Under the pieces are notes generated by a model that was given only the letters and a program-made list of their open reading frames with translations, was not told the origin of the DNA and ran no database searches. DNA of 31,769 nt from a virus. The stretch is taken from IMG/VR virus record IMGVR_UViG_3300017977_000101, positions 1 to 31,769 of that record; one strand, given 5' to 3'. This document shows positions 7,790 to 30,164 of the stretch, piece by piece (position 1 is the first letter of the stretch; the number at the start of each line of letters is the position of its first letter). A program made the position numbers and the translations under genes.

Positions 7790-9847
7790 TTAACTTATTG
7801 CTACTTCAAAATCTCTAACTGCACCTACTAATGCTTCAGATATCATCTCTTTAATTTTTAATTTAGACATATTAACAGAGGGAACTTTAATGATTAATTG
7901 ATTCACTAAGTTTTCAATTTTAGTGTCTATTACTTTTTTTTCAGCTGAAGCAAACCCAACTCCTTTATTTGAATTAGAAGATGATGATGTTGGATGTGTC
8001 CCTGCTTTTTTCGGTTTATTACTAGAAAAAGGCATGTCTTTATAACCTTTAGGTGAATTTTGACCCGTTTCTTGAGCCATTTTATCTGAAAAACTCATAG
8101 CCTTATCATCTACAGTATGCTCAACATTAACTGTAGCTTCAGGATTATCATCTCCAAAACCAAAAAATTCAGCAATTGAGTCAAACACTCCCATCACAGC
8201 GTCAACGATATCCGTTGCCCAACCCATCACATAATCCCACATATCACTAAACCATTGTACAATAGCATCTTTTGTCCCAGGAAATATTACATCTATCAAT
8301 TCTAATAACCAATTAAATGGATTCATATAAGTATTCCAATAATCCACCAAAATCCAAAACCATTCAGTTATAGAATCCCAAAAACCAGTAAAAAATTCTC
8401 CAAAACCTGACATACTATCAGTTAACCATACAAATCCAGCTACTAAAGCTCCTATTGCAACTATTATTAAACCGATAGGATTCATTGTTAGAGCAATATT
8501 AAGTAACCATTGTGCTGCAGTTGTTAATCCAGTCCATACTACTTGTAATCCCTTTAAGAAAATATCCTTCATCCTTAAGGCATTTTCTTTAAGCATTAAT
8601 CCTAAAGATTTATATGTTGATTTATTAAACAACATTTTTGCTTTATTAAGAGCAGTAAACAATGGTAACATTTGAGAAATTGTTAACCCCATTTTAGCCA
8701 TTAAATCAACATAAGGAACTAAGGGTTGTAACGAATCGAATAGTGAAATTTTAATATCACTCAACCAAGCACCAAATCTACTCATTGTAGATGTTGTTGT
8801 ATTTAACTTAATATCTGCTTGCTCATAAGCAGTATTAGTTCCTGTTATTGCAATGGTCATTTGTTCTTGAGTATCGATATTTTGCAATAAAGCTTGTGCT
8901 GCTAATTTATTTTCTTTACCAAATAATTTAGAAAGTAAAGCTGAATCTTCCTCAATAGGTTGCAGTAACCTTAATCTATCAGTAAAGCTTAGTGTTTTAT
9001 CAGATAGTTTTTCAACATCAATACCAGCACCTTGTAATTCCTGTTGCACATCTTTTGGTAAAAAACGTCCTTGATTTAATGATGCTAAAACATTTCTTAA
9101 TGCAATTCCTCCTTCAGCTCCTTTTTTACCAGCTTTATCTAAGGTTTCAATTGCACTAACCATTTCATTAAATTCAACTCCTGAAGCTTTAGCGTCTCCA
9201 CCAACATTTTGAATAGCAGCTTTTAATTGTGGTAACTCTGCAGAACCTTCTTTTGCTCCGGCCGCCATCATGTTCATCATGTTAGTCATTTCTTTCTGAG
9301 CCAATATTGGATCATCTAAAGAAACACTATATTGATTCATTGCTGTGGTCATAACTTCTACTGCTGCAGTAGTATCACCTCCCATAGTTTGTGACAATAT
9401 AGATACATTGTCTGCCATAGCACTTAATACTTCAGGGGTATTGGCTAATTCTGGCCCTAATTGGGATAATAATAATTTGTAAGTTTCAACAGAACTAGCG
9501 GCGTCACCTCCAAATTTTAAAGCATTGTCTCTAGCTTTATCTCCCAATTGGTCTAATTGATCACCTGTTAAACCTGTAATAGCAGATAAATCTGCCATAG
9601 ATTCTTCAAAGTTTAATCCTGGTTCTGTAATAGCATCAAAACCTTCTCCAATATTTCTGACATTATCAACAATTGATGAAAATTTGATTGAGTTTATTGA
9701 ATTTGATATTTTAGAAAAGGAATCTTTAGTGTTGCTTTCTAGAGTTTGAACAGTGTTTTCCAAACTAACAAAATTTTGTCGCAATTCTTTGATTGCAACA
9801 AAGATGTCTCCATTAATCTTAATATTAATATTTGCATTTTCAGACAT
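7790..9847 (-). CDS. Tail tape measure protein (TP901 type)
   Basis: 685 residues, the longest structural protein. A coiled-coil start (residues about 20-50) leads to a TP901-type core at about 75-350, with LNFEESMADLSAITGLTGDQL and LSQTMGGDTTAAVEVMT as hallmarks. Residues about 430-560 are hydrophobic with several Trp and Phe helices (PIGLIIVAIGALVAGFVWL), the part expected to enter the host membrane. The C-terminus is Ser/Asn-rich, then helical. At about 1.5 angstrom per residue this length suggests a tail of roughly 100 nm. The start ATG (9845-9847) lies back-to-back with a promoter and small gene on the other strand. Confidence 0.85.
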   Translation of the reverse strand: MSENANINIKINGDIFVAIKELRQNFVSLENTVQTLESNTKDSFSKISNSINSIKFSSIVDNVRNIGEGFDAITEPGLNFEESMADLSAITGLTGDQLDQLGDKARDNALKFGGDAASSVETYKLLLSQLGPELANTPEVLSAMADNVSILSQTMGGDTTAAVEVMTTAMNQYSVSLDDPILAQKEMTNMMNMMAAGAKEGSAELPQLKAAIQNVGGDAKASGVEFNEMVSAIETLDKAGKKGAEGGIALRNVLASLNQGRFLPKDVQQELQGAGIDVEKLSDKTLSFTDRLRLLQPIEEDSALLSKLFGKENKLAAQALLQNIDTQEQMTIAITGTNTAYEQADIKLNTTTSTMSRFGAWLSDIKISLFDSLQPLVPYVDLMAKMGLTISQMLPLFTALNKAKMLFNKSTYKSLGLMLKENALRMKDIFLKGLQVVWTGLTTAAQWLLNIALTMNPIGLIIVAIGALVAGFVWLTDSMSGFGEFFTGFWDSITEWFWILVDYWNTYMNPFNWLLELIDVIFPGTKDAIVQWFSDMWDYVMGWATDIVDAVMGVFDSIAEFFGFGDDNPEATVNVEHTVDDKAMSFSDKMAQETGQNSPKGYKDMPFSSNKPKKAGTHPTSSSSNSNKGVGFASAEKKVIDTKIENLVNQLIIKVPSVNMSKLKIKEMISEALVGAVRDFEVAIS

Positions 9848-10034: not shown

Positions 10035-10252
10035 TCTTTTTTCCCAAAAGCAGTAGCTAAAGCTTTTAACACTGCATTTTCCATTAAATCTCTATCAAAG
10101 TTTTTTATCCATAAAGCTTCAGCTAATAATTCAGCATAAAGCTCATCAGATATCAACCAAGGATTTATATTGAAACAACTTCTAATTAAAGCGCCTCCTT
10201 TAAGAATATCATCAACTCCAGCTTCAGTTGATATTAAGCTGGAGTTTACAGC
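10031..10252 (-). CDS. Tail assembly chaperone, C-terminal part made by -1 frameshift
   Basis: This frame has no start of its own near the 5' end. It is open from the slippery site to TAG at 10031-10033 and encodes 73 residues (AVNSSLISTEAGVDD... to ...ATAFGKKD). The fusion made by slippage would be 175 residues: 102 from the upstream frame plus 73. The arrangement is that of lambda G/GT and Mu gp41-type chaperones, where the frameshift product recruits the tape measure and the short form coats it. The next gene is the tape measure, as in those phages. The reading frame was confirmed by counting codons from 10252 to 10031. Confidence 0.8.
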   Translation of the reverse strand, partial: AVNSSLISTEAGVDDILKGGALIRSCFNINPWLISDELYAELLAEALWIKNFDRDLMENAVLKALATAFGKKD

Positions 10253-10258
10253 TTTTTT
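10216..10258 (-). promoter_or_regulatory. Programmed -1 ribosomal frameshift signal, tail chaperones
   Basis: On the minus strand the heptamer A AAA AAG (10252-10258) lies in the correct phase. It is followed by a 7-nt spacer holding the zero-frame stop TAA (10246-10248), then a perfect 9-bp hairpin CTCCAGCTT / AAGCTGGAG (10244-10236 with 10224-10216) around an 11-nt loop. Heptamer, spacer and stem match the standard -1 signal. Confidence 0.85.
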
Positions 10259-10557
10259 ATTTGTGCTTGCCTAACTTTAAATAGTGTTCCTAACTCTTTA
10301 ATAGCACTTAACTTAGCTTCATCATTCGTCTTAACAATTTCATTGCCACCTAACCAACAACTCTCAAACATAATATTACCACTTTTTACAGGATCAACCT
10401 CTGCAAATTTAGCAGCAAGTCCTACTATTTTTAGATCAGGTTTTTTAAAAAAAGCTGAAGCTTGATTTCCTTCATCATCTAAAGTAACATCTATTTGAAA
10501 TACGTCACCATGACGTTTTTTCCATTCTTTAATCTGTGCGGCTGTTATTTTTTCCAT
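10246..10557 (-). CDS. Tail assembly chaperone, short form
   Basis: 103 residues, helical at the end and mixed before. It lies between tail tube and tape measure, where the short tail-assembly chaperone is always found. The gene ends two codons after the slippery heptamer, so most ribosomes stop here and a minority make the longer form. The opening MEKITAAQIKEWKKRHGDVFQIDV and 'PDLKIVGLAAKF' are usual for Bacteroidota phage versions annotated as hypothetical. It acts in the cytoplasm during tail assembly and is not expected in the mature virion. Confidence 0.75.
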   Translation of the reverse strand: MEKITAAQIKEWKKRHGDVFQIDVTLDDEGNQASAFFKKPDLKIVGLAAKFAEVDPVKSGNIMFESCWLGGNEIVKTNDEAKLSAIKELGTLFKVRQAQIKKL

Positions 10558-13919: not shown

Positions 13920-14945
13920 TTAAACTACAACAGAGTATACAGCTCCAATTCCTTTGTTTCTTATAGGCATTGCCAAACCTCTCATTTGGAAACCATAAAC
14001 ATCTCCTCTTTCTTCTGGATCTTTTAATTTAGCAAACATGTCAACAGTACCTTGACAACGCATTACTTCATTTTTTTGAAATGCAACAGAGCAGATAGTA
14101 TCTGTTGTTGGTGCAGGCGCAGCTCCATAAGCAACTTTTACACCTGTAGCTTTATTGTATACAGGCATTCTTTTGGTGGCTAATGTGTATATTTTAAAAC
14201 CTCCATAAGTGCTTTCATTACTAAAGATAGTCTTATATAAAGTTAAATCTTGTTTTCTTAAATGGTTTTTATGTTTAGTAGATAACACAAGTATTCTTCC
14301 TTCTGCTCCAACTTCTGCATCATCAAATGCAGTTTCTAAATCAAGAATATCTTGAAATGTTAACATTTTATGACCAGTTCCGTCATCAGCTCCTGATGTT
14401 TGTAAAACAGGCGTGTAATTTCCATTTGATGATGGCGCAAAAGCGTGAATAGCTTTTTCCATATACTTCATTCTTAATGACATTCTGTGACCGTATAATA
14501 CTGAAGTACGTTTATCATAACTTAACTCTGCAATTTCAATATTTCTAATTAAAGTATTTTCAGTATCATAAGTGTCTAATGTTAATGAAATAGGCGTGTC
14601 ATTTCTCTGAGCTACTGGAATTGGATATGTTGAGTTATTAATTAACACATTTGGATTAACTCCTGCTTCAGCTAAATGTATAACGTCATTTTCAACAAAT
14701 GCACTCATATCTCTAGCCTCCTTTAAAAACATATCATCTCCATAAAAACCTTCCATTAAGTCAGGAAGCCAAATTTCTTTATTTAACCCTGCAAATAAGG
14801 AACCCTGAACTGCTGGTGTCATTAAACTTACTCCAGTAATAGTTCCTCCAACTGCTAATACAGGTAGTCCTGTTGAAGCTGATACTGCTATACTAAATAG
14901 TGATACTGCTACTAATGCGAAAAATGTATTTAAAAATCGTTTCAT
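13920..14945 (-). CDS. Major capsid protein with hydrophobic N-terminus
   Basis: 341 residues. It follows the protease/scaffold gene by 19 bp and has the layout of capsid proteins from Bacteroidota Mu-like phages (DLMEGFYGDDMFLKEARDM, FVENDVIHLAEAGVNPNVLINN, RNIEIAELSYDKRTSVLYGH, LRMKYMEKAIHAF). It is unusual in beginning with two hydrophobic stretches, about 5-24 and 28-46, the first like a signal peptide with VSAST at its end. I take these as a removable assembly segment rather than a secretion signal. The gene is expected to be the most strongly expressed late gene. Confidence 0.75.
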   Translation of the reverse strand: MKRFLNTFFALVAVSLFSIAVSASTGLPVLAVGGTITGVSLMTPAVQGSLFAGLNKEIWLPDLMEGFYGDDMFLKEARDMSAFVENDVIHLAEAGVNPNVLINNSTYPIPVAQRNDTPISLTLDTYDTENTLIRNIEIAELSYDKRTSVLYGHRMSLRMKYMEKAIHAFAPSSNGNYTPVLQTSGADDGTGHKMLTFQDILDLETAFDDAEVGAEGRILVLSTKHKNHLRKQDLTLYKTIFSNESTYGGFKIYTLATKRMPVYNKATGVKVAYGAAPAPTTDTICSVAFQKNEVMRCQGTVDMFAKLKDPEERGDVYGFQMRGLAMPIRNKGIGAVYSVVV

Positions 14946-14964
14946 TGTTTTTGTGTTTTTGTGT

Positions 14965-15855
14965 TTACTTATTAATAATTTCTTTATACTTGTCAGGATT
15001 ATCTTTTTTAATAGCTAATAATCCAGCAGTATCTTTTTTACGCCAATCAGAAAAAGTCCAATCTGATCTGTCTTCTCCTCCGTTTTCAGGTTTTTCTCTA
15101 CCAGCTAACTCTTTTTTTGTAGGCAATGCAGCAATTGTAACTTTTGCTAATTCAAAATTAGTGCTAGCTAACTCTTCAAAATGAGATTTTTGATCAGCAG
15201 TGATTCTCCCTTCACCAAGTGCTGTAGTAATTAACTGATTAACTTTTTGTTCTATTTCAGCTTGTTCTTTAGCTTCAAGATTTTTTAATTTTTTGCTTAA
15301 AGTTTCGATTGCAGAATTAACATCCGAATCAGATGCTCCTTCTATCAAACCTAAAGCCACATAACTCTTTGCGTTAAGTTTCATTTCTTTATTGTGTTTA
15401 ATTGGTTTTAAAATTCTACTTAGAGCCAACTTAAAAGCTTCTCCTTTAAGTTTAACTCCTTCACTGTTATACAATGTAATTGCATTTTTATTTGATGGAA
15501 TATCTACAACACTACATTCCATAACTTCAGCTTCAACCTTAGGTGTTTGTCCTTCTTTTTTTTCAACAGATAAAATTCTAATACCTAATGAAGCTCCTTT
15601 TACAAAATCTTTTTCAACTCTTTTTTTGATTTTAGCAGCCAAAACTTCATCTTCATCTTCCATAAATACTGGAGTACCTGTAAGCCTACCTTTTTCAACT
15701 TTAAGATTAGACCATTTACCTACTAATTCATTATGATTGTATAACATTACAGGATTAGACATAAAGCGTTCTAATTGTAATTTTTCCATATCAATAGAAA
15801 AACCAAAACTATTAATGCTTTCGTCTGATAATATAAATTCTTTTTTTTCTGGCAT
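14965..15855 (-). CDS. Head maturation protease fused to scaffold (Mu I-like)
   Basis: 296 residues in two parts. Residues about 1-140 fit a HK97-type prohead protease with His41 (NPVMLYNHNE) and Ser89 (KGASLGIRIL), plus the strand LTGTPVFMEDEDEVL. Residues about 158-296 are charged and helical with a coiled stretch (KKLKNLEAKEQAEIEQKVNQL), typical of a scaffold. In Mu the scaffold Z is also made from an internal start in protease I. Met158 (ATG at 15382-15384) is the matching candidate here. The start ATG is the first gene of the leftward late operon. Confidence 0.7.
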   Translation of the reverse strand: MPEKKEFILSDESINSFGFSIDMEKLQLERFMSNPVMLYNHNELVGKWSNLKVEKGRLTGTPVFMEDEDEVLAAKIKKRVEKDFVKGASLGIRILSVEKKEGQTPKVEAEVMECSVVDIPSNKNAITLYNSEGVKLKGEAFKLALSRILKPIKHNKEMKLNAKSYVALGLIEGASDSDVNSAIETLSKKLKNLEAKEQAEIEQKVNQLITTALGEGRITADQKSHFEELASTNFELAKVTIAALPTKKELAGREKPENGGEDRSDWTFSDWRKKDTAGLLAIKKDNPDKYKEIINK

Positions 15856-16021: not shown

Positions 16022-16462
16022 ATGACAAACAAAGAAAAAAAGCAATTAGCGTATAGTTTATTCATTAAGTCAAGTCTTAATCGTAAAGAAATAGCCAAAC
16101 AAGTTGGTTGTACTGAAAAAACATTAAGAAGATGGATTGAAACGGAGGGCTGGCAACCAATAAAAGAAGCGCAGACACTAACTAGAGGCAAATTACTACA
16201 AGATGCCTATTCACAACTAAAAGCTATAAATGATAAAATTAATAATGATTTAGGAGGCATTCCTAATAAAGAATTATCAGATGCCAAAGCTGTTATAAGG
16301 AAAGAGATTGAAACTTTATCTGGTCATCCATTACATTTATATGTTGAAGTTTTTACTGAATTTATTGATTGGGTTACAGATAATCACAAATCTAAAGTCC
16401 ATCAAGTAGTTGAGTTATCAGATGGGTTTATAAATGATATAGCAAGTAAAGAAGGTATATAA
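16022..16462 (+). CDS. Putative terminase small subunit
   Basis: 146 residues with a clear helix-turn-helix at about 18-42 (LNRKEIAKQVGCTEKTLRRWIE). A helical middle part (TRGKLLQDAYSQLKAINDKI) follows for oligomer formation. Its stop overlaps the large-subunit start by 1 bp (ATAATGG at 16460). A DNA-binding protein directly before TerL is the standard small terminase; the Mu counterpart has the same position. It is expected to recognise the phage end used for headful packaging. Confidence 0.65.
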   Translation: MTNKEKKQLAYSLFIKSSLNRKEIAKQVGCTEKTLRRWIETEGWQPIKEAQTLTRGKLLQDAYSQLKAINDKINNDLGGIPNKELSDAKAVIRKEIETLSGHPLHLYVEVFTEFIDWVTDNHKSKVHQVVELSDGFINDIASKEGI

Positions 16463-17970
16463 TGGCTAAGTTAAGAGATAAACAAGCTAAAATTATTTGG
16501 GATGCAAAAGTTAAACTTTTGCGTGAAAAAACCTTTATTAATCTTAATGAAACGAGAAAAGAACAGTTAACCCGAATTGAAAAAGCAAAAAAAGACTATG
16601 AATTCTTTGTTGAATTTTACTTACCTAATTTTGCTACCACCAAAACACCTAAATTCCATATTAAAACTGCTAATAAAATCAAAAGAAATAATGAAATTTT
16701 TATTTGGTTAAAATGGGGGCGTGGTTTAGCCAAATCTGTAGTTGGAGATGTTACAGTACCATTATGGTTGTGGATTAATAATGACATCAAATTTTTATTA
16801 TTAATAGGGCAGAAACAAAATAAAGCTGAAATATTACTTGATGATTTAAGACTGCAATTTGAAGGTAACGAAAGGCTAAAACATGATTTTGGTAGTCAAA
16901 AAAACACAGGGTATTGGGAAAGTGGTTTTTTTATAACAAAAAACGGATTTATAGCTAAATCCATTGGAATGGGACAAGAACCAAGGGGATTTAGAATTGG
17001 TGGTGATAGACCTGATTATATAATATGTGATGATTGGGAAACCAAAGAAACGTTAAAAAACCCAAAAAGACAGGATGAGTATGCAAAATGGTTATTAACG
17101 GGAATTATTCCAACTATGGATGGAGACAACCAGAGAGTAATATTAGCACAAAACCAATTTGCGCCTAGAATGATTTTTACAAAAATAGTTAATGAGAATA
17201 AAGGATGGATTGTATTTGAACAAAAAGCATTTGACCCTAAAACTCTAAAACCTATTTGGTCTGACAAATATCCACATGATTATTATTCTAAAAAAATTGA
17301 AACGCTTGGTATTTTAAATGCCAAAGCTGAGTATAACAATGATCCACATATTGAAGGTAAAATATTTACTGATGATATGATTCAATGGACTAAACTCCCT
17401 AGGTTAAATTCTTTTAAAGCTATTGTAGGAACATGGGACGTTGCTTATGCAGGAACTAAAACTTCAGATTATAATGCTATCAGAGTTTGGGGACTAAAAA
17501 ATGGTAAAAAATATCTGATAGACTGTTTTGTAAAACAATCTAAAATTAAACCTGCTGTTAAATGGATAGCTCAATTTCAAAAGAACTTACCTAAATCTGT
17601 TAGTATTCCTTTTAGATTTGAAGCTCAATTTTGGAATGATGAAATTGAAAGAATTATTAGTGAAGTAGAACTTGAGGAATCTGTTAATTTACATTTAGTC
17701 AAATCTGATAAACCAAAGAAAAAGAAATTTGACAGAATGCTAGAAATGCATCCACAATATCAAAACGGAAGAGTTTACTATAACATTAAATTGAAAGATC
17801 ATAATGATACAAAAGAAGGGTTAGCTCAATTAAAAGGATTAGAACCTGGATATAAAGGTCATGATGACGCACCTGATGCAGATAAAGCAGCATTTGATTA
17901 TTTAGATAAATATAATAGACATTCTGAAAGAACTTTTAGAATTGCTTACAGAGAATCACGTAAATATTAA
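16462..17970 (+). CDS. Terminase large subunit (packaging ATPase and nuclease)
   Basis: 502 residues. Walker A-like WGRGLAKS is at 85-92, Walker B with acidic pair IICDDWE at about 187-193 (Asp190/191), and the nuclease begins with GTWDVAYAGTKTSDYNA with Asp326 as the first metal ligand. The final acidic cluster GHDDAPDADKAAFDYL near residue 470 is also a usual terminase nuclease feature. It pumps phage DNA into the prohead and cuts it after a headful. The gene order small subunit, TerL, gp36-like, portal, MuF is close to Mu. Confidence 0.9.
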   Translation: MAKLRDKQAKIIWDAKVKLLREKTFINLNETRKEQLTRIEKAKKDYEFFVEFYLPNFATTKTPKFHIKTANKIKRNNEIFIWLKWGRGLAKSVVGDVTVPLWLWINNDIKFLLLIGQKQNKAEILLDDLRLQFEGNERLKHDFGSQKNTGYWESGFFITKNGFIAKSIGMGQEPRGFRIGGDRPDYIICDDWETKETLKNPKRQDEYAKWLLTGIIPTMDGDNQRVILAQNQFAPRMIFTKIVNENKGWIVFEQKAFDPKTLKPIWSDKYPHDYYSKKIETLGILNAKAEYNNDPHIEGKIFTDDMIQWTKLPRLNSFKAIVGTWDVAYAGTKTSDYNAIRVWGLKNGKKYLIDCFVKQSKIKPAVKWIAQFQKNLPKSVSIPFRFEAQFWNDEIERIISEVELEESVNLHLVKSDKPKKKKFDRMLEMHPQYQNGRVYYNIKLKDHNDTKEGLAQLKGLEPGYKGHDDAPDADKAAFDYLDKYNRHSERTFRIAYRESRKY

Positions 17971-17973
17971 AAT

Positions 17974-18384
17974 ATGAATTTTATAATAAAAACAGACTTG
18001 TTAAGCTTAATTGATTTAATAACTTTAGATACAATTACTAATAATAATGACTCATTACTTGATGAGGCTGAATTAAAAGCAATTGAAGAAATGTCTAGCT
18101 ACTTAAATGTGAGATACAAAGTTGTTGATATATTTGATAACACTATTGCAAAAAACCCTTTAATAGTAATGTATCTATCCGATATATTATTATATCACCT
18201 ACATAGTAGAATCTCTCCAGATAATATCCCTGAATTAAGGCTAAACAGATACAATAATGCAAAAGAATGGCTTGAAAAAGTTGCTGATGGTTTCATTGAT
18301 CCATTGCTTCCTCACAAAGATGAAACTGAAAAAATACCACTTAGATTTGGAAATAGTTCTAAAAAACAAAATCATTATTATTAA
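17974..18384 (+). CDS. gp36-like (DUF1320) head completion protein
   Basis: 136 residues. A helical protein with 'LLDEAELKAIEEMSSYLNVRYKVVDIF' followed by 'PLIVMYLSDILLYHLHSRISPDNIPELRLNRYNNAKEWLEKVADG' matches the DUF1320 (Mu gp36) pattern in which a short acidic loop and two long helices end with a 'R---A--WL--va-G' segment. These proteins form the ring that connects portal to tail. It starts 3 bp after TerL. Confidence 0.7.
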   Translation: MNFIIKTDLLSLIDLITLDTITNNNDSLLDEAELKAIEEMSSYLNVRYKVVDIFDNTIAKNPLIVMYLSDILLYHLHSRISPDNIPELRLNRYNNAKEWLEKVADGFIDPLLPHKDETEKIPLRFGNSSKKQNHYY

Positions 18385-18389
18385 TTATT

Positions 18390-19544
18390 ATGGCAAAAAA
18401 AAGACCAAACAAACTGTTAGATAAACTTATAGTTTCTAATACATCAAGAGCAAGAAAAGACATAAACAATTGGCGTGTTGCTCTACAACAAGCAGAAAAT
18501 GTTGATAATCCTAAAAGGGTATTATTATATAGCCTATATGATGAATTAGTAATTGACGCTAATTTATCAGCAGAAATTCAAAAAAGAATACTTGCAGTTA
18601 GAGGTAATCAATTTTCAGTTTTCAATATAAAAGATGGTAGTACTGATAATGAAAAAACAGCTTTATTAACTAAACCTTGGTTTTATAATTTCATTGAGTT
18701 AGCAATGGAAAGTATATTTTGGGGGCACTCTCTCATTCAAATAGGAGATTTAATTGAAGGAGAAATATCAAATGTTCAGCTTGTTAATAGAAAGCATGTA
18801 ATACCTGAAAAAGGATTGTTTATTTATAGACAAAATGATGAAAAAGGAGTGTTTTACAGAGAAGATAAACAATATGTTAATTGGTTGTTAGAAGTTGGAG
18901 AAAAAAAAGACTTAGGTTTACTAAATAAAACATCTCCTCATGTTCTATACAAAAGATTTGCAAACAGTGCTTGGTCTGAATACTGTGAGATTTTTGGTAT
19001 GCCTTTGAGATATGGTAAAACAAACGTTAAAGACACAGAGAGTTTAAATCGCATGGAAAACATGATGATTAATATGGGAGCGGCAGCTTATGCTGTAATT
19101 GATGAGGATGAGGAAATAAATTTTGTACAAGCTCAAGGTGGTAAAGGTGAAGTTTATGATAATTTAATAAACAGAGCTAATTCTGAAATATCAAAGTTAA
19201 TTAATGGAGCTGTTATTGGTGAGGCTTCATCTGGAGGTAGTCGTTCTAAAGAAGAGGTTGGAGAAAGAACTGGTAATATGATTACTGAAGCAGATAAACA
19301 ATTTTTAGAAGGCTATATTAATGAGACTTTAATTCCTAGGCTAATATTATTGGGATATCCTTTTAATGGTTTTGCTTTTAGATTTGAAAAAAGTAAAGAT
19401 ATTAAAAGCTTATGGGAAATAACTCAAGGCTTATTAACCCATTATGATGTGGATGAAGATTTTATTACCAAAACATTTGGCATTCCAGTTTCTAAAAAGA
19501 AAGAAGTTGCACCTAAATTGTCTGGTAGAGGTTTTTTCGACTAA
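18390..19544 (+). CDS. Portal protein (DUF935, Mu gp29-like)
   Basis: 384 residues, shorter than Mu gp29 (about 510). The start DKLIVSNTSRARKDINNWRVALQQAEN, the 'LYDELVIDANLSAEIQKRILAVRGNQF' core, the clip-like 'NRKHVIPEKGLFIYRQ' and the C-terminal 'GEASSGGSRSKEEVGERTGNMITEADKQFLEGYINETLIPRLILLGY' match DUF935. It forms the 12-fold ring through which DNA enters the head. Its last codons hold a slippery heptamer (19532-19538), so a fraction of ribosomes should continue into MuF. Most ribosomes stop at TAA 19542-19544. Confidence 0.85.
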   Translation: MAKKRPNKLLDKLIVSNTSRARKDINNWRVALQQAENVDNPKRVLLYSLYDELVIDANLSAEIQKRILAVRGNQFSVFNIKDGSTDNEKTALLTKPWFYNFIELAMESIFWGHSLIQIGDLIEGEISNVQLVNRKHVIPEKGLFIYRQNDEKGVFYREDKQYVNWLLEVGEKKDLGLLNKTSPHVLYKRFANSAWSEYCEIFGMPLRYGKTNVKDTESLNRMENMMINMGAAAYAVIDEDEEINFVQAQGGKGEVYDNLINRANSEISKLINGAVIGEASSGGSRSKEEVGERTGNMITEADKQFLEGYINETLIPRLILLGYPFNGFAFRFEKSKDIKSLWEITQGLLTHYDVDEDFITKTFGIPVSKKKEVAPKLSGRGFFD

Positions 19545-19563
19545 GCCCCCTAAATTTGGGGGC
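19532..19563 (+). promoter_or_regulatory. Programmed -1 frameshift signal joining portal and MuF
   Basis: Heptamer T TTT TTC (19532-19538) lies in portal phase. It is followed by a 6-nt spacer GACTAA that includes the portal stop, then hairpin GCCCCC (19545-19550) / GGGGGC (19558-19563) with 7-nt loop TAAATTT. After a -1 slip the frame is open (R L S P L N, then MuF). The phase and spacer length are canonical. GC-rich stems are rare in this AT-rich phage. Confidence 0.8.
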
Positions 19564-20803
19564 AAACTTGGATAATCTATATTATGGTTGTTGTCATCAC
19601 AGTTTTTCTAACTTAGATCTTTTAGAATTAAAACTATTTAAAGTCTTTAATCTTAAATATAATAAAGATAAAGTTATAAATGAAGCTAAATCAAACCAAA
19701 AAATCACTTCAGAGGAATTATTTAAAAACACAAATAAAACTTTAACTCTAGCTTTAAATAATGTGTATCCAGTTAAATTTGAAGATAAACATTTTGAGTT
19801 AATTAATAAGTTAGAAAGAAACATAGGAGAGTTTTCAGTATTTAGAAGTTCAAATGTGTTGTTAAATTTAAAAAACAAAACAAAAGAGGAACAAAATGCT
19901 ATACTTAACGTTTATGAACGTCATCTAAAAGTTGAATCAGATTATGTTACAAAAGTAATTAGAAATGCTAAAAAGTTTTTAAAATATCAAGAAGATGCCG
20001 ACTTATATCCTAATTTAGAATATTTACCAAGTAGTTCTGTTAATAAAAGACAAGAACATCAAGAGCTGTATGGCATTATTAAACCTATAAATGACCCTTT
20101 TTGGCAGAATTATTTACCACCAAATGGATGGGGGTGTCAATGTAGAACCAGACAAACAGATAAAGCAGAAACTAAAATTAAAATACCTAAAGTTAAAATT
20201 CCAAATGGGATAACTGGTAATGCAGTTTTAAGTCAAACTATTTTTACCAATAATCATAATTCATATAAACCTTTTAAGGTTGATGTAGATAACAGAGTTT
20301 TTCAAAGTAAAGTGAAAAAAGAATTTGAACAATTAAAATTAAAAACACCATTTAAAAACAAACCTGATTATAAAGCTAAAAATGGAAATACTATATATGT
20401 TCACACTTTTTGTGATTTTTCGGATTTAAATTCAAACTATAAAGTTGCAAAATTATTAGTTAATAAAATAGAAAACCTTCATATTAAAATAAGACCACAT
20501 GCTAATAATGTTAAAACAAATATTGGAGATAAAAAAACAAGTAATCCTGAATACTTAATAAATGGAGTATATGCTGATTTAAAAGAATTAAATAGTTATA
20601 ATGTTAATAATAGATTTTCATCAGCTAAAAAACAAGGGTGCAAAATAGTTGTTTTTAAAATATTAAATAAAAAAACAGAAATAACAGATGTTTTAAATTC
20701 AATTAAAGGGAAAATTAAACAAAGAAAAAGCAAGGTTTTTGATAGAATTTTTATTGTTAAAGGAGATACTGTTGTTGACTTTAAGCCAAAAAGAGTTGAA
20801 TAA
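19556..20803 (+). CDS. MuF head morphogenesis protein with C-terminal toxin-like domain, made via -1 frameshift
   Basis: 415 residues from the first non-ATG start (TTG 19556). The open frame reaches back to the frameshift site at 19538, so 421 residues come from this frame and the portal fusion would be 804 residues. Translated from that TTG the protein contains no methionine after the first residue, so no ATG start is available. Residues about 1-210 are MuF: NLDNLYYGCCHH at the start and PPNGWGCQCRTRQ near 195, which is the family's Gly-Trp-Gly-Cys-x-Cys motif. Residues about 265-415 look like a CdiA-CT tRNase or related nuclease (NPEYLINGVYADLKE, then IVVFKIL, and FDRIFIVKGD near the end). 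In several phages MuF proteins carry polymorphic toxins in the C-terminus. TTG starts at 19556 (inside the hairpin) and 19568 remain as alternatives. Confidence 0.75.
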   Translation: MGANLDNLYYGCCHHSFSNLDLLELKLFKVFNLKYNKDKVINEAKSNQKITSEELFKNTNKTLTLALNNVYPVKFEDKHFELINKLERNIGEFSVFRSSNVLLNLKNKTKEEQNAILNVYERHLKVESDYVTKVIRNAKKFLKYQEDADLYPNLEYLPSSSVNKRQEHQELYGIIKPINDPFWQNYLPPNGWGCQCRTRQTDKAETKIKIPKVKIPNGITGNAVLSQTIFTNNHNSYKPFKVDVDNRVFQSKVKKEFEQLKLKTPFKNKPDYKAKNGNTIYVHTFCDFSDLNSNYKVAKLLVNKIENLHIKIRPHANNVKTNIGDKKTSNPEYLINGVYADLKELNSYNVNNRFSSAKKQGCKIVVFKILNKKTEITDVLNSIKGKIKQRKSKVFDRIFIVKGDTVVDFKPKRVE

Positions 20804-20816
20804 ATCAACTCTTTTT
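20788..20816. terminator. Perfect hairpin terminator after MuF, bidirectional
   Basis: AAAAAGAGTTGA (20788-20799) and TCAACTCTTTTT (20805-20816) form 12 perfect pairs around a 5-nt loop. The stem overlaps the last codons of MuF and carries a T run on both strands. On + it would reduce transcription into the last two head genes. Confidence 0.7.
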
Positions 20817-20852
20817 AGGAGGTTCTGCGTCCACAACGTTCCCCGCCGAACC
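20788..20852 (-). ncRNA. Candidate small antisense RNA at the MuF 3' end
   Basis: A minus-strand transcript starting at about 20851 after the box TATCTTTG (20857-20864) would read a hairpin with GGTTC/GAACC (20848-20852 with 20821-20825) and an inner GCG/CGC pair. It would end in the terminator at 20788-20816, about 64 nt in all. Bases 20818-20852 are about two thirds G+C in an AT-rich phage. The TTTG box upstream of TATCTTTG is not found at the right spacing, so promoter support is partial. Confidence 0.3.
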
Positions 20853-20856
20853 ATTA

Positions 20857-20864
20857 CAAAGATA
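20857..20864 (-). promoter_or_regulatory. Promoter-like TATCTTTG box, minus strand
   Basis: TATCTTTG on the minus strand matches TAnnTTTG exactly. The nearest TTG upstream (20889-20891) is 24 bp away instead of about 20, so the second box is weak. Confidence 0.3.
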
Positions 20865-20890
20865 TAAAAAATATTATTAATAATAAAACA

Positions 20891-21436
20891 ATGGCAGATT
20901 TTAACGACATATTAACAAAGATTAAAGGAATTGAGAATGTACTTGATGATGCAAAACGTATAATTGGAATTGAAGCTGTTAATTATTTTACTGAAAGTTT
21001 TGATAAGCAATCTTTTAATGGAAAAAAATGGAAAGATGTTAAACGTAGAGATAGCTCAAGCGTATGGTATGGATTTGAATATGGAGCTAAAACACCTCCA
21101 CCATCAAGCCATCCTAAAAGAAAAAACGCTAAAGGAAAATACATCCCTGGAAAAACAAATCCAACTACAAACTATAGCCCAAATGCAACAAAGAAAAAAA
21201 TATTAAGCAGTAAAAAAAGTGAATTGGAAAATTCAATTCAATATAAAATAACTGGCAATATAGTTAAAGTGTTTTCTGACAAAAAATATGCTAAAGTCCA
21301 CAATGAAGGAAAAACAATTAGTGTGTTTGGTAAAAAAACAGTTAAACTTCCTAAACGACAATTTATAGGCAAGAGTAAAGAATTAGAGGAAATAATAATT
21401 AAAAAGATAAATAAGAAACTTAAAAAATATTTGTAA
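20891..21436 (+). CDS. Virion morphogenesis protein, Mu gpG-like
   Basis: 181 residues. The C-terminal half 'SIQYKITGNIVKVFSDKKYAKVHNEGKTI...KLPKRQFIGKSKELEEIIIKKI' is the usual phage virion-morphogenesis / Mu gpG pattern ('-Ya-vhn-G-----p-R-fiG-s'). The start includes a conserved-looking 'FDKQSFNGKKWKDVKRR'. Mu gpG helps tail-head joining. It lies after MuF and before the gp37-like protein, as in Mu. It is very lysine-rich. It is not a candidate immunity protein for the MuF toxin-like domain. Confidence 0.65.
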   Translation: MADFNDILTKIKGIENVLDDAKRIIGIEAVNYFTESFDKQSFNGKKWKDVKRRDSSSVWYGFEYGAKTPPPSSHPKRKNAKGKYIPGKTNPTTNYSPNATKKKILSSKKSELENSIQYKITGNIVKVFSDKKYAKVHNEGKTISVFGKKTVKLPKRQFIGKSKELEEIIIKKINKKLKKYL

Positions 21437-21906
21437 TGTATATAGACTATTATAGCGCCATTAAAACGTTAATTAATCAAGGTTTAAACAGTATTAAAAC
21501 AATTGATTGGTATAACAGACAATATGAAAGATTTGAAAAACTAAAAGCTTCAGCATTGCCAGCTGTATATGTAGAGTTTCCAACACCAGCTAATTGGAAT
21601 ACTGGTGGTAATGGATTGCAAACTGCAGAAGTTTATATTACTTTGCATATTGTTATGTTTGATGTAGCAGATACCCCTGAACCTGTATTAACTTTAGCAA
21701 ATGAAATCCATAAAATAATACATTTATCTGTGCTTATTAACGGGCCGGTACAATTAAGTACTAGATTAATGAGAACAAAAAGTGAATTAATTACAGAATA
21801 TGATCAAGTTAAAGTTGTTACATTAACTTACACTACCACTATTTATGACTGTTCTACTGCTCCTAACCAAATAAATAGTAATCCTACTTTAGTTATTGGT
21901 CAATAA
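21436..21906 (+). CDS. Tail completion protein in the Mu gp37 position
   Basis: 156 residues. The stretch 'YERFEKLKASALPAVYVEFPTPANWNTGGNGLQTAEVYITLHIVMFDV' (beta strands around an AEV/YITLHIV core) is typical of short head-tail adaptor or tail terminator proteins of Bacteroidota phages. It starts at the last base of the upstream gene's stop and is the last gene of the rightward late block. The C-terminal strands include VKVVTLTYTTTIYDCST. It likely caps the tail tube. Confidence 0.5.
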   Translation: MYIDYYSAIKTLINQGLNSIKTIDWYNRQYERFEKLKASALPAVYVEFPTPANWNTGGNGLQTAEVYITLHIVMFDVADTPEPVLTLANEIHKIIHLSVLINGPVQLSTRLMRTKSELITEYDQVKVVTLTYTTTIYDCSTAPNQINSNPTLVIGQ

Positions 21907-27220: not shown

Positions 27221-28078
27221 TTAGGCGGCTGTTTGGTTTTGAAGTTTTTTAAATGCGTGTATCTTTCTTTTTACTCGTCTTAAATCATCTTCACAATTTT
27301 TGTAAATTGCTTTAATGTCTGATGTTGATGTTATTCCGTTGGCATTACACACTTGTATTACATCTGTATAGCCTACACCATTAAGTTCAATAAACTGTCT
27401 GCCTATTCTTGAGTAAATTTCCTTATATCCTTTTTTATTAAGTTTTACCCCTTTTTTTATGCGCTTGGCTAAATGATCAGTTGCACACATTATAATACCA
27501 CATCTATCTTCAAGCTCGTTGTAAATGGTAATAAAAAAATATAGTACCTGATCTGTTAATTTATCTACTTCATCTAATGTAATAAGAGGCTTGTCTTGTT
27601 TTAAAAGTGTACTAATCACTTCTTGCATCATTTCTGCTACAGTTAAACCACTACTGTCACGCCCCATTGCTTGTAATAATTCTGACAAAAAGTATTTACG
27701 GTTCCAAAACTCTGAGCAACGTAACATATATGCTCTTTTATATGTTTTAGTGTATTGTTTTATAGCTTCAGATTTGCCAGAACCAGCCTCACCAACTACA
27801 GCATACACTAAACTATTTTCTTGACTATCTAATAACAGTTTAGACATCATAATAAAATCTCTTGTTTGTACAATTTGCCACTCTTCAGAACCATCAAGTT
27901 GTGAGTTGATTGTTCTCCACATCTCATCAGATATTAATTCCCATTTTGAATTTAAAACCTGACTAATTGTTGCAGAGCTAACTCCTTTTAAAGTGTTAGA
28001 TGCTTTGTTTTGGCTGTCGAATCGGCTAACGTAACTTTTTAATTTGTTAGCAATAATTTGTTTTTCCTCTTTTTTCAT
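27221..28078 (-). CDS. MuB-like AAA+ transposition ATPase
   Basis: 285 residues, near the length of MuB (312). Residues about 10-62 form an N-terminal helix-turn-helix of the kind seen in MuB (SNTLKGVSSATISQVLNSKW). Walker A is GEAGSGKS at 96-103, Walker B PLITLDEVDK with Asp169/Glu170, and a sensor-type 'MCATDHLAKR' follows. The C-terminus is helical and basic. It would bind target DNA, choose the insertion site away from the phage and stimulate the transposase. It follows the transposase after a terminator-like hairpin. Confidence 0.8.
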   Translation of the reverse strand: MKKEEKQIIANKLKSYVSRFDSQNKASNTLKGVSSATISQVLNSKWELISDEMWRTINSQLDGSEEWQIVQTRDFIMMSKLLLDSQENSLVYAVVGEAGSGKSEAIKQYTKTYKRAYMLRCSEFWNRKYFLSELLQAMGRDSSGLTVAEMMQEVISTLLKQDKPLITLDEVDKLTDQVLYFFITIYNELEDRCGIIMCATDHLAKRIKKGVKLNKKGYKEIYSRIGRQFIELNGVGYTDVIQVCNANGITSTSDIKAIYKNCEDDLRRVKRKIHAFKKLQNQTAA

Positions 28079-28154: not shown

Positions 28155-30164
28155 TTATTGAAGCATTTGCTTGTAAATATTAGTTGCTTGGTCATCTTCA
28201 TCTTGAGATTCTAATTCTGACACTTGAGATTCTAATTTGATAACTTTACCAATATCTGCAGGTTGTTTTTTATTTTTTGATTTTAGACCTAATAGTCCTG
28301 GAGACTTCAATCCATATTGTTCAGGTAACATTCCGTGTTCCTCTAATATTTCATCCATTGTTTCTGATGCTTTTAATCGTGCATCATCATTAAGCTCTTT
28401 AATTTTTTGTATGTATTCAGACTCAAACTCTTCTTGCTCTTGTTTACCTCTGTGAATTTCTATTTTAGTGGTTGCCTCACAAACAAATCTAATTCCAAGC
28501 GGTGTATCTTCATACAGGTAAATCATACTCATGTCATCAGGGTCAAACTTGATAATAAACTTTTTATCAATATTCATTCTTAACCATTCTACATTAGGAT
28601 AACCATCTTTATAAACCATGTATTTATACTCCACTTTGTTTTCTCTAAATGAAATACCTCCTGGAGTGCATGTAACTTTTTTAGGACGTTTAATCCAAAA
28701 TAAATCAACCATATCCCATAATGTTACTTGAGGTGTTTCAGGGTTTTGAGAATTCAAATACATTTCTAAACGTGGCATTCCACTTTTTGGATGAGCAGCT
28801 TCATTCCATTCTTTTCGACAATTTTTATAAATTTCAACTACTTCTTTAAAATTTGGAAGGCTATCCTTATTAGCCAACACCATTTCTCTATGAGCTTTAC
28901 TTGAAATTGATTTTGCAGTAATGTTTTGACCTGTAAAATTCCAATATTTAGCAAGGAACTGTTTTTGAAATCTACCAAATGCACTCTCAATCGTTTTTGA
29001 TTTTCCATTATATGGTGTTGTTTTAATAGCCAAACGTGCAACCTTTGTTAAAAACTCTCCTGATTTTAACTTTTTATGTCCACCTTGACCATCAAACCCT
29101 ATTTGATATGGCTTATGTCCTGAAATTTTAATAGCCATTTTATAAGCCTTAAATTGAGCCTCATAGTTTTCTGTTTTGCTGATGTGATACCCTAAAAATA
29201 CTTCACTAAAAGCATCCATTACTTCATAAACTTGGCAAGTTTCAATTTTACCATCTTTGTTTAAATAGTATAAATTCAATTTGGTTCCGTCAGAATACCA
29301 CAATGAATCTCTCATACTTGGCAATTTAGTTGTGTGATGGTAGGTAAATTTTTCTTTGGCATAAACATCTCCATGTCTATGTCCATACCATAAATGTTTA
29401 ACGCCATCTTTATATAAAAACAATCTTAATGTATTTTCATCTTTAAGTTGCTTCCAACCTTCTTTTAAAGCTTTTTCATTATATTCAAACAATAGTTGAT
29501 TTAGTGATACAACTCTTGCAACTCTATCTGACCAACGAGCTAGTACCCAAAAACTAGCCTCTTTATTAATTTTTTCAGAATTATCATTGCAAAATCCTTT
29601 ATGAATTAAAACCTCATAACCATTTGAATGATAAGCTTTATATTTTTCTTTAAGCCTACGAACATTTTTAGGCAACGAGTGAGGATAGGTGTGGCGTGGC
29701 AAATTTTGAATTACCTCTGATATAGCCTCCCAAAGTTTTTTAGCTCTACCACCTAAAGAATTGGCACTTGATTTACGCATATTAACCACTGTTTTAACTG
29801 TGTTTAAGATAGATGCGTTAGCAATGTATTCATTAATGTTTTTTTCAGGCAAGGCTGTGCCATTTGGTAGTGTGTAATCTTTATAAAACTCCTCAGCTTT
29901 TATATCGGTAACCAATAAATCTCTAAATCTATTGTGTTTGGTTGTTTTGTAAGGGTCGCCAAACTTGTCTATTATAATTTGTTTAAAACGCTCAGGTAAA
30001 CTATCATAAACCACTAATGCAGATCTTCCGTTACCTCCTCTACGGATAACATTTAACCAGCCTCTATGTCTTAAGTTTTTATAATTATTAAAAGTCATAA
30101 CTCCTGCATCATTATAGAGCCAACCACCGTGTACACAAAGTTTGTTTTGATAGTATTCAAACAT
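28155..30164 (-). CDS. MuA-like DDE transposase
   Basis: 669 residues, about the size of MuA (663). The DDE triad fits Asp292 (SLWYSDGTKLNL), Asp358 (GFDGQGGHKK) and Glu393 (KTIESAFGRFQ); the Asp-Glu spacing of 35 is the classic value. The N-terminal part holds the DNA-binding domains, with 'WLNVIRRGGNGRSALVVYDSLPERF' in a Mu-type I-beta-gamma position. After the core, a Mu-type C-terminal barrel (EYKYMVYKDGYPNVEWL) and a helical tail with acidic repeats follow. It binds the end sites and inserts or replicates the phage. It is the first large gene after the early promoter. Confidence 0.9.
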   Translation of the reverse strand: MFEYYQNKLCVHGGWLYNDAGVMTFNNYKNLRHRGWLNVIRRGGNGRSALVVYDSLPERFKQIIIDKFGDPYKTTKHNRFRDLLVTDIKAEEFYKDYTLPNGTALPEKNINEYIANASILNTVKTVVNMRKSSANSLGGRAKKLWEAISEVIQNLPRHTYPHSLPKNVRRLKEKYKAYHSNGYEVLIHKGFCNDNSEKINKEASFWVLARWSDRVARVVSLNQLLFEYNEKALKEGWKQLKDENTLRLFLYKDGVKHLWYGHRHGDVYAKEKFTYHHTTKLPSMRDSLWYSDGTKLNLYYLNKDGKIETCQVYEVMDAFSEVFLGYHISKTENYEAQFKAYKMAIKISGHKPYQIGFDGQGGHKKLKSGEFLTKVARLAIKTTPYNGKSKTIESAFGRFQKQFLAKYWNFTGQNITAKSISSKAHREMVLANKDSLPNFKEVVEIYKNCRKEWNEAAHPKSGMPRLEMYLNSQNPETPQVTLWDMVDLFWIKRPKKVTCTPGGISFRENKVEYKYMVYKDGYPNVEWLRMNIDKKFIIKFDPDDMSMIYLYEDTPLGIRFVCEATTKIEIHRGKQEQEEFESEYIQKIKELNDDARLKASETMDEILEEHGMLPEQYGLKSPGLLGLKSKNKKQPADIGKVIKLESQVSELESQDEDDQATNIYKQMLQ

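What the first reader, a model, noticed from the sequence alone, without database searches (positions are those of the whole stretch)
19532..20803. Portal and MuF are joined by a programmed -1 frameshift
Seen: T TTT TTC in portal phase, a 6-nt spacer carrying the portal stop, then a GC-rich hairpin (GCCCCC/GGGGGC), and an open -1 frame that runs into MuF. The 1.2-kb MuF frame has no ATG at all, so ordinary initiation would need a TTG. Known: -1 frameshifts in phages of this group are established for tail chaperones. I know of no established portal-MuF case, though portal-MuF fusions exist. Inferred: slippage would set the number of MuF (and toxin-like) domains fixed to the portal ring, giving a few long copies among 12 portal subunits.
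Basis: partly seen in the sequence, partly recalled or inferred. Interest (0 to 1): 0.9.

Follow-up and report, generated by a model that had tools for sequence, protein, structure and literature searches.

The report
Ribosomal frameshift joining portal and MuF
Well over two hundred related phage sequences, from Bacteroidota where the host is named, carry at the end of the gene for the DNA-entry ring (portal) a conserved slippery site and RNA hairpin that should make some ribosomes change frame and weld a second, sometimes toxin-bearing head protein (MuF) onto the portal, so that one gene start yields both a plain portal and a portal-MuF fusion.

Summary
In detail: T TTT TTC in portal phase at 19532-19538, a 6-nt spacer with the stop, a 6-bp GC hairpin, and an ATG-less MuF frame open in -1. 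It is the only such combination in the window; simulated windows average 0.05.

Relatives make a strong case. Of 112 distinct junctions found by portal homology with a MuF in view, 88 have MuF in -1 behind a T-heptamer. FF is coded TTT TTC in 86 of 87, always after a T. The hairpin is selected beyond the peptide it encodes (mean z -3.06, controls -0.16) and shows compensatory changes. A DNA pattern free of homology lands behind a portal in 78 of 80 loci by an independent profile.

A sister group has the opposite polarity: portal and MuF fused in frame 0, heptamer kept in 67 of 70, hairpin still selected. The tree needs three polarity changes. Both products thus seem required, as with dnaX (recalled).

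Best reading: -1 programmed ribosomal frameshifting that makes portal and portal-MuF. No protein evidence was available; ten searches of open-licence papers found no earlier report.

The parts
18390..19544 (+). portal gene (Mu gp29 / DUF935 type), zero-frame product of 384 aa
   Evidence: PF06074 E 2.9e-75, phrog_113 E 1.5e-51
19532..19538 (+). slippery heptamer T TTT TTC, in portal phase
   Evidence: TTT TTC in 86 of 87 FF-ending relatives, preceding base T in 87 of 87
19539..19544 (+). 6-nt spacer GAC TAA with the portal stop codon
   Evidence: in the predicted folds of 80 relatives the first paired base lies 5 or 6 nt behind the heptamer in 51, 0-4 nt in 26 and 8-11 nt in 3
19545..19563 (+). 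putative stimulatory hairpin, 6 bp GCCCCC/GGGGGC, loop 19551-19557
   Evidence: -14.2 kcal/mol; window z -4.52, 0 of 300 synonymous recodings as stable; compensatory pairs in relatives
19538..20803 (+). MuF as entered by -1 slippage (codon CGA at 19538 on): 421 aa; the predicted fusion is 383 + 421 = 804 aa
   Evidence: phrog_19194 E 4e-29
20543..20767 (+). C-terminal toxin-like domain of MuF, CdiA_C (residues 336-410 of P0002)
   Evidence: PF18451 32.9 bits, cut-off 26.6

Best explanation
The site is a -1 programmed ribosomal frameshift signal. Ribosomes that translate the portal gene meet the hairpin with the Phe codons in the P and A sites; in a fraction of passages both tRNAs slip back one base on U UUU UUC, the portal stop is bypassed, and translation runs on into MuF. 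One start codon so gives two proteins: plain portal (384 aa) and portal-MuF (804 aa), in a ratio set by heptamer, spacer and stem. Both would enter one portal ring, which fixes a limited number of MuF domains, here with a CdiA_C toxin-like tail, to the ring by covalent linkage. SHOWN: the signal, its phase and place, its conservation, selection on the RNA, and the two polarities. INFERRED: that slippage occurs and how often, that mixed rings form, that the MuF tail is carried in the head and delivered.
For: (1) Frame and signal: of 112 distinct junctions found by portal homology (portal HMM E<1e-60, MuF found), 88 have MuF in -1, overlapping the portal end, with T TTT TTC or T TTT TTT in portal phase. 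(2) Codon constraint: FF is TTT TTC in 86 of 87 and the preceding base is T in 87 of 87 though that residue is P, S, R, D, G, N, Y, A, H or C; elsewhere in the same portals TTC outnumbers TTT 1157 to 731 and T is about 21% of third bases. (3) RNA constraint: against synonymous recodings of the -1 frame, 80 junctions have mean z -3.06, 81% below -2; 320 control windows in the same MuF genes -0.16 and 7%. (4) Covariation: in 50 junctions chosen for equal geometry by their four outer pairs, the three inner pairs, not used for the choice, are paired in 50, 50 and 49 of 50 with several pair types each; shuffled columns give means of 46.3, 24.2 and 27.5. (5) Homology-free pattern: a portal profile made only from A1 is found upstream in phase in 78 of 80 listed loci. 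(6) Heptamer exchanged, stem kept: L199 has A AAT TTT, the same 6-nt spacer and GCCCCT...AGGGGC. (7) Inverted polarity with the signal kept: 67 of 70 fusions with FF, found by homology, keep T TTT TTC; stem mean z -1.93 against -0.30; slip and inverted states need 3 changes on the portal tree. (8) ATG is rare near the junction: within 60 nt in 7 of 80, median 141 nt away. (9) MuF identity of the -1 frames is independent of my own profile: PF04233 over its cut-off in 10 of 10 relatives scanned.
Against: No peptide, reporter or ribosome-profiling result was available. Near relatives L002/L003 (the same contigs as L020/L021) end GTT TTT TAA, without an in-phase XXXYYYZ heptamer; there only P-site slippage or another route would work. 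The stem is weak or absent in L031, L265, L271 and L301 (my reading). In the inverted group the heptamer is lost in L510 and L530, FF is lost in L542, and L557 has T8. Distant lineages use a separate ATG start (L010, L011, L033, L038, L229, L231, L238) or in-frame fusions with no FF at the junction (L201, L227, L239). None of the 46 rows below my portal threshold has the T-heptamer class, so the signal marks a part of the Mu-like phages. Hankyphage p00 has the signal and also an ATG in MuF frame 4 nt before the portal stop. For covariation, sliding the partner by +1 or +2 pairs pair 5 as well (50 of 50), so only pairs 6 and 7 discriminate. Rows are related to each other; A2 and A3 were built wholly or mainly from motif-bearing portals; my MuF and second portal HMMs were trained partly on motif loci, so the counts are partly circular.
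Confidence: 0.92

Rival explanations
1. MuF is a separate gene started at TTG 19556 or 19568, or by termination-reinitiation behind the portal stop; heptamer and hairpin are incidental or help coupling.
For: TTG codons exist in frame; 37 of 80 relatives have some ATG/GTG/TTG within 60 nt of the heptamer; distant relatives do use a separate ATG; hankyphage has an ATG next to the portal stop.
Against: No conserved start: ATG within 60 nt in only 7 of 80. Does not explain the T TTT TTC codon fixation, the -1 phase in 88 of 112, or heptamer and stem kept in fused ORFs that have no stop to reinitiate from.
Confidence: 0.04
2. Transcriptional slippage: RNA polymerase adds a base in the T run, and the edited mRNA is read straight through.
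For: The run is T6 (T8 in L005/L023 and L557), and A9-A10 runs without a GC stem stand at the junction in L012, L172 and L236.
Against: Run length is held at six with a following C and fixed portal phase in 86 of 87 and 67 of 70; polymerase slippage would favour longer runs and not need the phase (general knowledge). A hairpin 6 nt downstream is not yet transcribed when the polymerase is on the T run. The exchange to A AAT TTT in L199 keeps a tandem-slippage heptamer, not a run.
Confidence: 0.04
3. Sequencing or assembly error, or a decayed MuF pseudogene, in this contig.
For: Metagenomic contig with a homopolymer at the junction; single contigs such as L006/L025 and L281 do show isolated frame breaks.
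Against: The same -1 relation recurs in 88 distinct junctions, among them named phage records (hankyphage p00, BKO1-TP4) and assembled bacterial genomes.
Confidence: 0.003

Closest known systems
-1 frameshift of tail assembly chaperones (lambda G/GT; Xu, Hendrix and Duda 2004, seen as reference titles in PMC8008677; PMC12846349 passages)
   Same: slippery site near the end of the upstream ORF, conserved -1 ORF, short and long product from one start
   Different: different genes (portal and MuF), products expected to stay in the virion, strong GC hairpin behind the stop, reversal of polarity within the family
T7 major capsid protein frameshift (gene 10A/10B recalled; named as a T-rich -1 signal in a PMC12846349 passage)
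   Same: -1 slippage on a T-rich site gives a minor extended form of a head protein
   Different: T7 extends the major capsid protein by a short tail (recalled); here a complete second protein with variable C-terminal domains is added to the portal
bacterial dnaX frameshift (recalled, not searched)
   Same: the inverted group has the same logic: in-frame long product, -1 slippage to a near stop makes the short one, with heptamer and hairpin
   Different: phage head protein; both polarities occur within one gene family
SPP1 gp6/gp7 portal-MuF complex (PMC5576092 and PMC6316719 passages)
   Different: separate proteins that bind each other
In-frame fusions of portal, MuF and effector domains (PMC5512222 passages; phrog_35074; Porphyromonas phages)
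   Same: portal and MuF in one polypeptide
   Different: the passages read describe fusions, and the word frameshift does not occur in that text; here the fusion is conditional on slippage, or the plain portal is
MuF polymorphic toxins, Bxa of Bacteroides (PMC5576092, PMC11699363 passages)
   Same: MuF domain with a variable C-terminal toxin domain in the head module; Bacteroidales relatives with glutamine deamidase domains, as predicted in p00
   Different: treated there as a separate protein; the word frameshift does not occur in either main text

Membership tests
-1 programmed ribosomal frameshift site (tandem-slippage class) | X XXY YYZ heptamer in the zero frame | tested here: met
   T TTT TTC at 19532-19538; T-heptamer in 88 of 112 relatives
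-1 programmed ribosomal frameshift site (tandem-slippage class) | downstream RNA structure after a short spacer | tested here: met
   exceptions L031, L265, L271, L301
-1 programmed ribosomal frameshift site (tandem-slippage class) | conserved open -1 frame with its own homology | tested here: met
-1 programmed ribosomal frameshift site (tandem-slippage class) | transframe protein detected | not testable with these tools
Portal_Mu (PF06074) | Pfam score over cut-off | tested here: met
   254.1 bits, cut-off 23.9
Phage_Mu_F (PF04233) | Pfam score over cut-off | tested here: inconclusive
   window 27.4 bits, cut-off 29.6; 10 of 10 relatives scanned are over it, 33.3-64.9 bits; phrog_19194 4e-29
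MuF polymorphic toxin | C-terminal toxin domain | tested here: met
   CdiA_C 32.9 bits, cut-off 26.6; activity not tested
MuF polymorphic toxin | adjacent immunity gene | tested here: not met
   only 87 bases lie between MuF and the next + strand gene, a gpG-like Phage_tail_S protein; the one after it is phrog_6911 of unknown function; a small, opposite-strand or distant immunity gene is not excluded
dnaX-type inverted frameshift (for the sister group) | in-frame long product, -1 frame ending soon behind a kept heptamer and stem | tested here: met
   67 of 70 keep T TTT TTC; the -1 frame ends after 1-30 codons in 70 of 70, which alone is weak because a random frame would mostly do so

The most novel reading that the evidence does not exclude
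Across these phages translational recoding controls the composition of the genome-entry ring: portal rings are built as mosaics of plain and MuF-bearing subunits from one start codon, and evolution has kept the two-product output while flipping which product needs the slip. MuF toxins of this group would be covalent portal extensions, not separately targeted cargo.
Probability: 0.6. Interest if true: 0.88.

Novelty: new variant of a known kind. Interest (0 to 1): 0.82.

Why it matters
Portal rings are taken to be uniform 12-mers and MuF a protein that docks on them (general knowledge; SPP1 passages). If this holds, a large group of phages of Bacteroidota, hankyphages among them, builds rings with two kinds of subunit and tethers a MuF protein, sometimes with a toxin-like domain, by translation; P. 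gingivalis prophages would do the same with reversed polarity. MuF gene calls in these phages would then begin at wrong starts, and work on Bacteroidales MuF toxins would need to consider the portal-linked form. The reversed polarity gives a natural experiment on which ratio is needed, and on -1 frameshifting in a phylum where recoding is little studied (last point from general knowledge).

Tried and rejected
Considered and rejected: terminator reading of the hairpin (the T run lies upstream of it on +, and no T run follows it on either strand, by eye); assembly error; stem as a by-product of a conserved SP..GL peptide (synonymous test, and residue pairs T/V, S/E, S/L, A/A that follow base pairing). 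The 'MuF HMM start' figures are not used, because that HMM was built from frames cut at the slip. The independence-based probability printed is not used, because the rows are related.

No structure was predicted.

Rows dropped before counts: of 203 phage records with a portal match I fetched 15; of 53 portal places, 4 weak fragments (G108, G143) were not fetched; of 189 rows, 46 below the portal threshold, 18 repeated junctions, 6 running off and 7 without MuF were set aside.

Papers: no report of a portal-MuF frameshift among the results (open-licence PMC only; not every listed paper was opened). Seen as passages: PMC8008677, PMC10367356, PMC7911831, PMC12135933 (plus its Mass spectrometry section whole), PMC8776804, PMC5506516, PMC10299305, PMC11699363, PMC5576092, PMC5512222, PMC6316719, PMC12846349. 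All others: listing only.
Full report
WHAT IS THERE. The window is a virus record of 31,769 bases, 29% GC, with a Mu-type transposase at 28155-30164 and a transposition protein at 27221-28078. Terminase (16462-17970), a gp36-like adaptor (17974-18384), portal (18390-19544), MuF and a gpG-like protein (20891-21436) lie in a row on +. The portal ends GGT TTT TTC GAC TAA, followed at once by GCCCCC TAAATTT GGGGGC. The -1 frame is open from 13 nt before the stop to 20803 and holds no ATG. Fold energy of 19532-19570 is -14.2 kcal/mol, 0 of 200 shuffles as low. No other heptamer-plus-GC-stem of the kind scanned lies on either strand; simulations give 0.05 per window.

RELATIVES. Five viral contigs at 52-75% portal identity (L002-L006; L002 and L003 identical over the junction shown) have a T run of 6-8, a GC stem with changed but matching bases (GCCCTC/GGGGGC, GCCCCC/GGGGGC, GCCCCG/CGGGGC, GCCCTG/CAGGGC) and MuF in -1; in L006 the MuF frame breaks further on. 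I then assembled 189 rows found by portal homology: 24, 4, the best 80 of 526, 15 of 203 phage records, 65 genome loci, and the window. Of these, 143 match my portal HMM at E<1e-60. Eighteen repeat a junction, 6 run off the contig and 7 have no MuF in view, which leaves 112. Of the 112: 88 have MuF in -1, overlapping, with T TTT TTC or T TTT TTT in portal phase; 6 have -1 with another heptamer (L036, L012, L172, L196, L199, L236); 4 have a -1 overlap without a heptamer (L020, a near relative, and L037, L038, L238, with TTG, ATG and ATG at the overlap); 6 are in +1 (five with a nearby ATG, L039 with a distant MuF); 5 are fused in frame; 2 are contigs with frame breaks (L025, L281); 1 is separate (L034). 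None of the 46 weaker rows has the T-heptamer class; a few -1 overlaps among them have A-rich heptamers. Bias: A2 was built mainly, and A3 wholly, from motif-bearing portals, so 88 of 112 describes this part of the family, not all Mu-like phages. In 395 genomes of the phylum of G003 (a Flavobacteriales MAG by its title), 44 have a PF06074 portal, and only 2 have the slightly looser pattern TTTTTTCGNNTRAGCCCNN{3,12}GGGC, each right behind a portal; the pattern read backwards gives none.

SELECTION ON THE SIGNAL. Among 109 distinct junctions, 87 portals have FF within their last 18 residues: TTT TTC 86 times, TTT TTT once, T before it 87 of 87. For the stem I recoded the -1 frame at random with each gene's own codon use: 80 junctions give mean z -3.06, 81% below -2, the window -4.52 with 0 of 300; 320 control windows in the same genes give -0.16 and 7%. 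In 50 junctions chosen for GCCC and GGGC at fixed places, pair 6 occurs as G-C, A-T and T-A and is paired 50 of 50 (shuffled mean 24.2, slid partner 14-24), pair 7 in 49 of 50 (shuffled 27.5, slid 3-30); pair 5 is paired 50 of 50 but equally so when slid by +1 or +2, so it does not discriminate. The residues coded by the two arms follow base pairing: T with V, S with E, S with L, A with A. The rows are related, so these figures are not independent trials.

HOMOLOGY-FREE TEST. With a portal HMM made from A1 alone, 78 of the 80 listed have a portal upstream in phase; L098 is cut by the contig edge and L074 has a short upstream frame. With HMMs partly trained on these loci, and so partly circular, all 120 give: 117 with a portal (111 with MuF in -1, 6 without a MuF call), 2 with MuF in -1 only (L074, L098), 1 with neither (L150).

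INVERTED POLARITY. P. gingivalis phages (L014, L175) and gut contig L015 have portal and MuF in one frame, yet keep T TTT TTC, the 6-nt spacer and a GCCCC...GGGGC stem. To avoid motif selection I searched by homology with A3: the best 80 of 213 loci, 5 duplicates, 3 running off, 1 not fused (L523), 71 fused. Of these 70 have FF, 67 exactly T TTT TTC (L510 and L530 lost it, L557 has T8; L542 has no FF). The -1 frame ends after 1-30 codons in 70 of 70; most random frames would end so soon, so this is consistent rather than telling. The stem test gives mean z -1.93 (59% below -2) against -0.30 (5%) in 280 control windows. So a signal useless for a plain fusion is under selection; its evident use is to make a portal without MuF, the logic of dnaX (recalled). 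A FastTree of 142 portals, thinned at 70% identity within each label, needs 3 changes between the two polarities, all on starred branches; the tree is quick and some long branches are joined.

MECHANISM. Likely -1 simultaneous slippage on U UUU UUC stimulated by the hairpin. The portal stop differs among relatives in position and identity (L004, L013, L019 stop behind the stem), so termination is not the key element. L003/L020/L021 (GTT TTT TAA) would need P-site slippage before the stop. Long A runs at L012, L172 (Winogradskyella phage Peternella) and L236 could act by ribosome or polymerase slippage; I leave those open.

FUNCTION. [quoted passage not shown] A covalent link at a set frequency could do the same job. 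The C-termini vary: CdiA_C in the window, L022 and L023; LPD3 in L300 (below cut-off in L024, L044); a papain-fold glutamine deamidase domain in hankyphage p00; L026, L030, L032 and L189 show PF04233 only. MuF toxins of Bacteroidales are known from Bxa and kin (passages of PMC11699363). No immunity gene is evident directly behind MuF here, so I do not file it as a complete toxin-immunity pair.

LIMITS. No direct protein evidence. The portal-MuF ratio, the mixed ring and delivery are inference. If the ratio is conserved, the inverted group needs more efficient slippage; if not, the ratio differs between groups. Hankyphages also offer an ATG. Novelty rests on ten searches of open-licence papers.

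Noticed in passing
window 10258-10252, - strand: A AAA AAG in phase at the end of ORF 10246-10557, followed by an open -1 frame of about 73 aa, upstream of the tape measure gene (7790-9847): a classical-looking tail-chaperone -1 site in the same phage.
   Followed up: partly
window 20788-20816, + strand: AT-rich inverted repeat straddling the MuF stop and ending in a short T run, terminator-like (by eye).
   Followed up: no
L012, L172, L236: Flavobacterium phage fF4, Winogradskyella phage Peternella and a genome locus have A9-A10 runs at the portal end with MuF in -1 and no GC stem seen: a second kind of slippage junction, perhaps transcriptional.
   Followed up: partly
L199, + strand, portal end: Slippery heptamer replaced by A AAT TTT with the same 6-nt spacer and a GCCCCT...AGGGGC stem kept.
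   Followed up: partly
L003 5144-5155; also L002, L020, L021: Near relatives of the window end GTT TTT TAA: stem and -1 MuF kept, in-phase heptamer lost.
   Followed up: partly
L265, L271, L301: T TTT TTC GACTGAGCCCC kept but the downstream half of the stem replaced by other sequence, the -1 frame still open; looks like a recombination point inside the hairpin.
   Followed up: no
rows below the portal threshold: Four distinct -1 junctions of more distant portals carry in-phase A-rich heptamers (A AAA AAG or A AAA AAA); not examined further.
   Followed up: no
window 13920-15855 (-) and 16022-21906 (+): Capsid and protease genes lie on the opposite strand from terminase, portal and MuF, unlike phage Mu (Mu order recalled).
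   Followed up: no
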